From NCBI GenBank assembly GCA_018830225.1, contig JAHJSS010000029.1, positions 1 through 33,964 on the forward strand: 33,964 nucleotides of DNA, read 5' to 3'. The notes under the pieces are model-generated. The model did not search any database, was not told the origin of the DNA, and saw only the letters and a program-made list of their open reading frames with translations. Source of the stretch: Nanobdellota archaeon. Lineage in GTDB: Archaea > Nanobdellota > Nanobdellia > Woesearchaeales > UBA11576. The translations under genes and the position numbers were made by a program. Each line of letters opens with the position of its first letter. Position 1 is the stretch's first letter. Shown here in pieces: positions 1 to 844 of the stretch.

Positions 1-52
1 CAAAAACATTTAAATACACCCAGGTATACTGCTCTCTCCGGATAAAAAGAGG

Positions 53-366
53 GTATTTGTTTAGCTCTTACTGTCGCAGCGCCACGCTGCTAGTGGCGCG
101 TTGCCGGCAGGGAATTAAATCTTTAGCCGCGGGAGGCTGGCGCCTTCCATATGTCAAAAGCGGCAGGGGACCACCGGTCAAAGACCGGTGGCATGTTCGC
201 TTCGCTCACCCCTGCCGCCTTTTGAGCATGCTCAGCATACCACCACTAACCACCAATCACAGATTGGTGGTATGCTGACATATCAATTGAGATGTGGCCG
301 GTTTCCGCCCCTCATTTCCGATTAGCGCGTAAGCGGTGGCGCTGCTAAAATCAGCTAAACAAATAC
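53..366. repeat. Palindromic repeat element copy A (MITE-like, about 314 bp) with 14-bp perfect terminal inverted repeats and nested internal hairpins
   Basis: GTATTTGTTTAGCT at 53-66 is the exact reverse complement of AGCTAAACAAATAC at 353-366; subterminal GCAGCGCCAC/GGTGGCGCTGC; near-identical ends in copy B (32103-32286). Confidence 0.8.
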
Positions 367-379
367 AAAAGAGGCAAAT

Positions 380-844
380 ATGGTAATCCACGAGAGCTTT
401 GTCACAAGGAAGCCGCTTGAGTTCACCCTGATAGTCCTTGTAATCGTGCTTGTGGTGCTCCTGCCTTTCTACTTCATCACAAAGAAGAATGCAGCTCCTG
501 CTGAAGAGGGGCAGCTTATCCCTGAGACATACAGCGAAGTGAACTATCTGTTAGGGCCCGAAAGCGACCTTTCTGAGAGCGACAAGAAGCATCTTTTCGC
601 CCTGAGCTATGAGGGCAACTTTGTCCAGTGGAGCGGAAGCATGCTATCCTGTGATAGCCTGGGTTCAATGTTCAGGGTGAGCATAGATGAGACTGGAAAT
701 AACTTCGGCGATGTCATCTTTACGACAATGAGTGACTGTACAGACATACCTGCAGGCACAACCATAACATTCAAGACAAGGCTCATCGATTGGAAGATAA
801 CAACTTTTGTCGGAAAGGATGGTGAGATAATAAAATGGGAATAG
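380..844 (+). CDS. Single-pass membrane protein with extracellular domain, tandem paralogue of the next gene
   Basis: N-terminal TM (FTLIVLVIVLVVLLPFYFI); RBS-like agaggc just upstream; shared YxEV...V-W...SC...DCT...GKDG pattern with 835-1323. Confidence 0.8.
   Translation: MVIHESFVTRKPLEFTLIVLVIVLVVLLPFYFITKKNAAPAEEGQLIPETYSEVNYLLGPESDLSESDKKHLFALSYEGNFVQWSGSMLSCDSLGSMFRVSIDETGNNFGDVIFTTMSDCTDIPAGTTITFKTRLIDWKITTFVGKDGEIIKWE

What the first reader, a model, noticed from the sequence alone, without database searches (positions are those of the whole stretch)
53..366. New palindromic (MITE-like) repeat family with TATTTGTTTAGCT termini
Copies A (53-366) and B (32103-32286) share both ends (34/40 left, 34/36 right), a central GGCCGGTTTC[CT]GC block, and inverted termini, but differ in length and internal sequence. 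Neither encodes a transposase. Each lies very close to gene boundaries (copy A ends 14 nt before the ATG at 380; copy B ends 7 nt from the METTL5 stop). Two to four related copies in 34 kb suggests a mobile or amplified family.
Basis: seen in the sequence. Interest (0 to 1): 0.7.

Follow-up and report, generated by a model that had tools for sequence, protein, structure and literature searches.

The report
IS66-linked MITE family in Woesearchaeota
The two repeats are copies of a short, gene-less jumping DNA element that an IS66-type transposase most probably moves around the genome of an uncultured archaeon; one copy has itself been hit by a second, different mini-element.

Summary
Copies A and B share a perfect or near-perfect 14-bp TIR (GTATTTGTTTAGCT). 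About 14 copies with both ends lie in this 1.3-Mb genome, and the exact TIR occurs in 11 of 100 genomes searched, own included (up to 84 ends per genome). Both window copies have exact 8-bp target duplications (A AAAAGAGG, B TTTTATTT). Over 36 elements, 23 have exact 8-bp duplications, against 0 of 1,260 mismatched flank pairs. A same-genus relative has the empty site of A (one AAAAGAGG) and lacks B. Two relatives carry complete elements with the same TIRs and 8-bp duplications that encode an IS66 transposase; ends of such elements also sit at contig breaks in the window's own genome. Copy A is longer because a 130-nt IS200/IS605-like element is nested inside it; without it A is 184 nt, exactly like B. 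Copies also carry a GC-rich subterminal stem not found in the autonomous IS; it shows compensatory changes and persists where TIRs have decayed, once inside the METTL5-like gene. This is a new member of a known kind (MITE). The stem is the unexplained part.

The parts
45..52 (+). left target-site duplication of copy A (AAAAGAGG)
   Evidence: exact 8-bp repeat of 367-374; single copy at the empty site of relative G002
53..366 (+). copy A: MITE with TIR GTATTTGTTTAGCT at both ends; 184 nt plus a 130-nt nested insert
53..66 (+). left TIR of copy A
   Evidence: exact match to TIRs of the autonomous IS66-type elements
353..366 (-). right TIR of copy A; its first 19 nt inward equal the DUF2080-side end of the IS on own contig C43
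152..281 (-). nested non-autonomous IS200/IS605-like (PATE-like) element, inserted 3' of TTGAT on the minus strand (ATCAA at 282-286 on +)
   Evidence: 99-100% identical copies on C67, C62, C12, C66 and partial ones on C39, C38, C22, C10; two hairpins, no TIR, no TSD
367..374 (+). right target-site duplication of copy A (AAAAGAGG); includes the SD-like GAGG of the ORF at 380
380..844 (+). 154-aa ORF of unknown function (no Pfam/NCBIfam hit) whose inferred 5' leader carries copy A
   Evidence: conserved in G002 with the same TATA-like TTTAAATA (window 11-18) and start context
32095..32102 (+). left target-site duplication of copy B (TTTTATTT)
32103..32286 (+). copy B: 184-nt MITE
   Evidence: 98% identical over its full length to a copy on C78, 89% to one on C9; absent at the orthologous site in G002
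32287..32294 (+). right target-site duplication of copy B (TTTTATTT), overlapping the METTL5-like stop codon
   Evidence: coordinates
32639..32816 (-). TIR-less relative of the MITE core inside the METTL5-like ORF 32293-33126, which stays open through it
   Evidence: 85% identical over 179 nt to G000:C13:5104-5282; absent from the METTL5-like gene of G002; core match at 32639-32660, arms 178 nt apart

Best explanation
Copies A and B are members of a non-autonomous MITE family moved in trans by an IS66-family transposase (ISBst12-like: one transposase ORF, in some copies with a small DUF2080 ORF). The transposase recognises the terminal GTATTTGTTTAGCT repeats and joins the short element to a staggered cut in AT-rich, mostly intergenic DNA; repair of that cut leaves an 8-bp duplication. 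Shown: TIRs, 8-bp duplications, several near-identical copies, empty sites, and autonomous IS66 elements with the same ends. Inferred: that this transposase moved these copies, and the chemistry. Copy A landed at the Shine-Dalgarno-like AAAAGAGG of the ORF at 380 and duplicated it, so the gene kept a ribosome site but gained a hairpin-rich leader (inferred). Later A was itself hit by a 130-nt IS200/IS605-like element.
For: About 14 two-ended copies in the genome and TIRs in 11 of 100 genomes searched. Exact 8-bp duplications at 23 of 36 elements and at least 7/8 at 28 of 36; mismatched left/right flanks give 8/8 in 0 of 1,260 pairs and 7/8 in 0.5%; exact duplications peak at k=8 only. Empty site for A in G002 with one AAAAGAGG and B absent in G002. 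G075:C42:2478-4042 (1,565 bp, TSD CATAATAT) and G026:C63 (1,594 bp, TSD ACAAAAAT) have the same TIRs and encode proteins called IS66 by NF033517 at 7e-68 and 1e-67, over its cut-off. G026 also carries a DUF2080 ORF. Own genome: IS66 C-terminus at the ends of contigs C46 and C7, 75% identical to G075, and a DUF2080-type ORF start at the end of C43, each next to the TIR. The C43 end and the right end of A share 19 identical nt.
Against: No complete IS66 element is assembled in the own genome (draft, 81 contigs), and its C46/C7 ends carry GTACTTG rather than GTATTTG. The three relatives richest in the TIR (G008, G010, G068) show no close (>50% identical) IS66 transposase in their incomplete assemblies. 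MITE interiors do not resemble the IS interior, so they are not simple deletion derivatives. Transposition was not observed.
Confidence: 0.9

Rival explanations
1. The repeats are MITEs, but moved by another, unseen transposase family that also makes 8-bp duplications and shares the TIR.
For: Genomes with the most copies (G008, G010, G068) have no close IS66 hit.
Against: The only TIR-bounded elements with a transposase that were found are IS66, twice complete and in several partial copies. Ends of own IS fragments match MITE ends beyond the TIR.
Confidence: 0.06
2. Functional structured RNA or regulatory element (leader or 3'-end hairpin) spread by duplication rather than a transposon.
For: Copies sit close to gene ends; the GC-rich core stem has compensatory changes (107 double-change comparisons against 22.5 +/- 10.6 in shuffles).
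Against: 8-bp duplications and empty sites, unrelated neighbouring genes, no Rfam match in the window. Fold-back repair of palindromes can produce the same compensatory pattern.
Confidence: 0.03
3. Two-layer composite: the GC-rich core is an independent small palindromic mobile repeat, and only some copies lie inside IS66 TIRs. (This concerns the core; it does not compete with the MITE reading of A and B.)
For: Several core copies lack TIRs, including the one in the METTL5-like gene and copies on C78, C10, C22, C69.
Against: Residual TIR-like letters stand next to some TIR-less cores (G002:C7, C13:5104), and the FEN1-side copy shared with G002 has lost its TIR but kept its core, as expected for old MITEs. 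No flanking duplications were noticed at TIR-less cores (by eye only).
Confidence: 0.15

Closest known systems
ISDge4 / ISBst12 group of IS66 (Deinococcus geothermalis; PMC12898284)
   Same: TIRs GTGACTACTCAGCA and GTAACTGCTCAGCA resemble GTATTTGTTTAGCT (the second agrees at 9 of 14 positions); 8-bp duplication; one transposase ORF of 449 aa (437-451 aa here).
   Different: Bacterial host; no DUF2080 ORF and no MITE derivative mentioned in the passages read.
Archaeal MITEs (SM1-SM4 of Sulfolobus, Haloquadratum MITEs; PMC10969869, PMC3119063)
   Same: Short, non-coding, TIRs shared with a transposon, target duplications, interior unrelated to the transposon.
   Different: IS66 is not mentioned in the MITE review; the host here is a DPANN archaeon; a second GC-rich subterminal stem is conserved.
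PATEs of Haloquadratum walsbyi (PMC3119063)
   Same: The element nested in A has near-terminal palindromes, no TIR, no duplication and a short target at one end.
   Different: No matching TnpA gene was found in the own genome.
Rickettsia palindromic elements (RPE; from memory)
   Same: A core-type palindrome sits inside a conserved protein gene (METTL5-like) that stays open.
   Different: Only one such case seen; the repeat belongs to an IS66-linked MITE lineage.

Membership tests
MITE | short (<500 nt), no transposase ORF | tested here: met
   two-ended copies of 146-345 nt
MITE | TIRs matching an autonomous element | tested here: met
MITE | target-site duplications of the partner's length | tested here: met
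   8 bp in MITEs and in both complete IS elements
MITE | multiple copies and empty sites | tested here: met
MITE | mobilised by the partner transposase | not testable with these tools
   needs a transposition or cleavage assay
IS66, ISBst12 group (autonomous partner) | IS66 transposase over curated cut-off | tested here: met
   NF033517 229 bits against cut-off 180; PF03050 115 bits against 23.1
IS66, ISBst12 group (autonomous partner) | 8-bp duplication and TIRs like those of the group | tested here: met
   CATAATAT and ACAAAAAT; GTATTTGTTTAGCT; yardstick ISDge4
IS66, ISBst12 group (autonomous partner) | no tnpA/tnpB accessory genes, a single transposase ORF | tested here: met
   1,565 and 1,594 bp hold one transposase ORF; the small ORF in G026 is DUF2080
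PATE / IS200-IS605 non-autonomous (nested element) | subterminal hairpins, no TIR, no TSD, fixed short target at one side | tested here: met
   TTNAT-like letters precede most copies; flanks otherwise unrelated; read by eye over about nine copies
PATE / IS200-IS605 non-autonomous (nested element) | ends shared with a TnpA-encoding element | tested here: not met
   no Y1 transposase in the own genome; those of G001 lack these ends. The element is therefore called PATE-like only
Known Rfam RNA | match at gathering score | tested here: not met
   no match in the window

The most novel reading that the evidence does not exclude
The GC-rich subterminal stem (about 10 bp, a one-nucleotide bulge in many copies, then a further short helix) is a functional folded structure, in DNA or RNA. 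It is kept by selection after insertion, so that dead MITEs persist as domesticated hairpins, including one read through as protein in the METTL5-like gene.
Probability: 0.2. Interest if true: 0.6.

Novelty: new member of a known kind. Interest (0 to 1): 0.4.

Why it matters
It gives a MITE and transposase pair, with empty sites, for uncultured DPANN archaea, where my literature searches found no MITE described; none of them turned up an IS66-derived MITE in archaea either. It accounts for recurrent palindromes in these assemblies and for some contig breaks, and shows how such elements lengthen gene leaders and enter coding sequence in small genomes. The conserved subterminal stem offers a testable question: why a MITE keeps a second, sequence-variable but complementary stem that its autonomous partner lacks.

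Tried and rejected
Structured-RNA origin: no Rfam hit, and duplications plus empty sites speak for transposition. Deletion derivative of the IS: only the ends match, so rejected. PF03050 in the own genome gave nothing, because the transposase is cut by contig ends; the C-terminal peptide found it. A scan of genome contigs with the transposase found just two loci, too few for a distribution. A Y1 transposase partner for the nested element was not found. Paper searches for DPANN or IS66-derived MITEs found none; the library holds open-licence papers only.

Full report
What was checked. Copies A (53-366) and B (32103-32286) are real. Both begin GTATTTGTT[TC]AGCT and end AGCTAAACAAATAC, have no transposase ORF, and share the central GGCCGGTTTC block. 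The own genome (1.317 Mb, 81 contigs; the window is contig C23) holds 33 TIR matches with at most one mismatch, against 1 for the reversed control pattern. About 14 of the copies have both ends, at 159-314 nt, in at least two subfamilies. B is 98% identical to a copy on C78 and 89% to one on C9.

Why A and B differ. BLAST of A against the genome gave matches of about 136 nt at 99-100% to four unrelated places, all inside A. Cutting out window 152-281 leaves 184 nt, the length of B, C78, C9 and C6. The insert has two hairpins, no terminal inverted repeat and no target duplication; on its own strand (window minus) most copies follow TTNAT-like letters. These are the traits of non-autonomous IS200/IS605 elements, the PATEs of Haloquadratum (PMC3119063). 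No Y1 transposase with these ends was found, so I call it PATE-like only.

Transposition signature. The sample is 36 elements from eight genomes: own copies, MITEs of G002, G004, G008, G010 and G068, and the IS elements of G075 and G026. Of these, 23 have exact 8-bp direct repeats outside the TIRs and 28 match at 7 or 8 of 8. Pairing the left flank of one element with the right flank of another gives 8/8 never in 1,260 pairs and 7/8 in 0.5%. Exact duplications of other lengths are rare (at most 2 of 36). The targets are 78% A+T. In the same-genus relative G002 the leader of the ORF at 380 reads ...acatttaaataca...AAAAGAGGcaaacATG with a single AAAAGAGG, a clean empty site for A. G002 also lacks B between the METTL5-like gene and the next gene. 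The copy beside FEN1 (C9) is shared with G002, where its TIR has decayed: an older insertion.

The partner. Of 100 genomes searched, own included, 11 hold the exact TIR: 79 ends in G008, 84 in G010, 64 in G068. Two relatives have a complete larger element between such TIRs: G075 (1,565 bp, duplication CATAATAT) and G026 (1,594 bp, duplication ACAAAAAT). Their proteins are IS66 transposases (NF033517, 229 bits against a cut-off of 180; PF03050), 52% identical to each other. G026 also encodes a DUF2080 protein, a family named as transposase-associated. In the own genome the same C-terminus lies at the ends of contigs C46 and C7, 75% identical to G075, and a DUF2080-type start at the end of C43. 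Each adjoins the TIR, so autonomous copies probably exist but break the assembly. The nearest described relative of these ends is ISDge4 of the ISBst12 group (GTAACTGCTCAGCA, 8-bp repeat, 449-aa transposase; PMC12898284). The genome record that matches G075 at 100% is titled Nanoarchaeota archaeon and the other hit Woesearchaeota. G075 is in the same order as the window, so the host is a DPANN archaeon of that group; its own name was not shown.

Consequence for the window genes. The TATA-like TTTAAATA at 11-18 is conserved in G002. A is inserted about 35 nt downstream of it and duplicates the Shine-Dalgarno-like GAGG, so the ORF at 380 should still be translated, from a leader longer by 322 nt (inference). 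The duplication of B overlaps the METTL5-like stop codon, and the stop is kept.

The second stem. Apart from the TIR, MITE copies have a GC-rich subterminal inverted repeat 1-19 nt inside it. Of 26 copies tested, 22 score above at least 199 of 200 shuffles and the other four have p=0.01-0.05; the two autonomous elements do not reach significance (p=0.275 and 0.06). One arm often carries a single extra base. For the sub-type GCAGCGCCGCGTGARGCTCGGC (17 matches in the own genome, 16 in G004, 5 in G002), 13 distinct stems show full double changes at four of ten pairs: 107 double-change comparisons against 22.5 +/- 10.6, maximum 66, in column shuffles. Shuffles ignore relatedness, the search for the closing arm favoured paired stems, and fold-back repair of palindromes can copy one arm onto the other, so this does not prove selection. 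Many of these cores lack a recognisable TIR; TIR-like letters beside some suggest old MITEs whose AT-rich ends decayed first. One lies in the METTL5-like ORF, which stays open through it, and is absent from G002.

Verdict. A and B are MITEs of an IS66 (ISBst12-like) element in a Woesearchaeota-type archaeon: a new member of a known kind, well supported. What remains open is the role of the second stem and the identity of the transposase in the most heavily loaded relatives.

Noticed in passing
window 32639-32816 (minus), inside ORF 32293-33126: About 60 extra residues in a METTL5-like methyltransferase, made of a TIR-less MITE-core palindrome; absent in same-genus G002.
   Followed up: partly
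G000:C13:27600-27920 (L003), G000:C10 near 36100-36280 (L054), right flank of the MITE at G000:C60:3979-4137 (L014): A third palindromic repeat family with ends like GGTGCTGTCAAGTTAAGTGTCATG; one IS66-type MITE (C60) abuts it and lacks a matching duplication.
   Followed up: no
L193-L198 (G068): G068 MITEs share the TIR but carry a longer stem (GCGGTGGCGACTGCC) with a larger bulge; it may be homologous to the core of A.
   Followed up: partly
L232, L233 (G004:C91): Core palindromes nested inside other core-like palindromes.
   Followed up: no
G000:C20:22964-23273 and G000:C75:5052-5276: MITE copies enlarged by further short hairpin inserts (for example GGGTTTCGAGCAAGCTCGAAAC, CTTTCAAGCAAGCTTGAAAG).
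   Followed up: no
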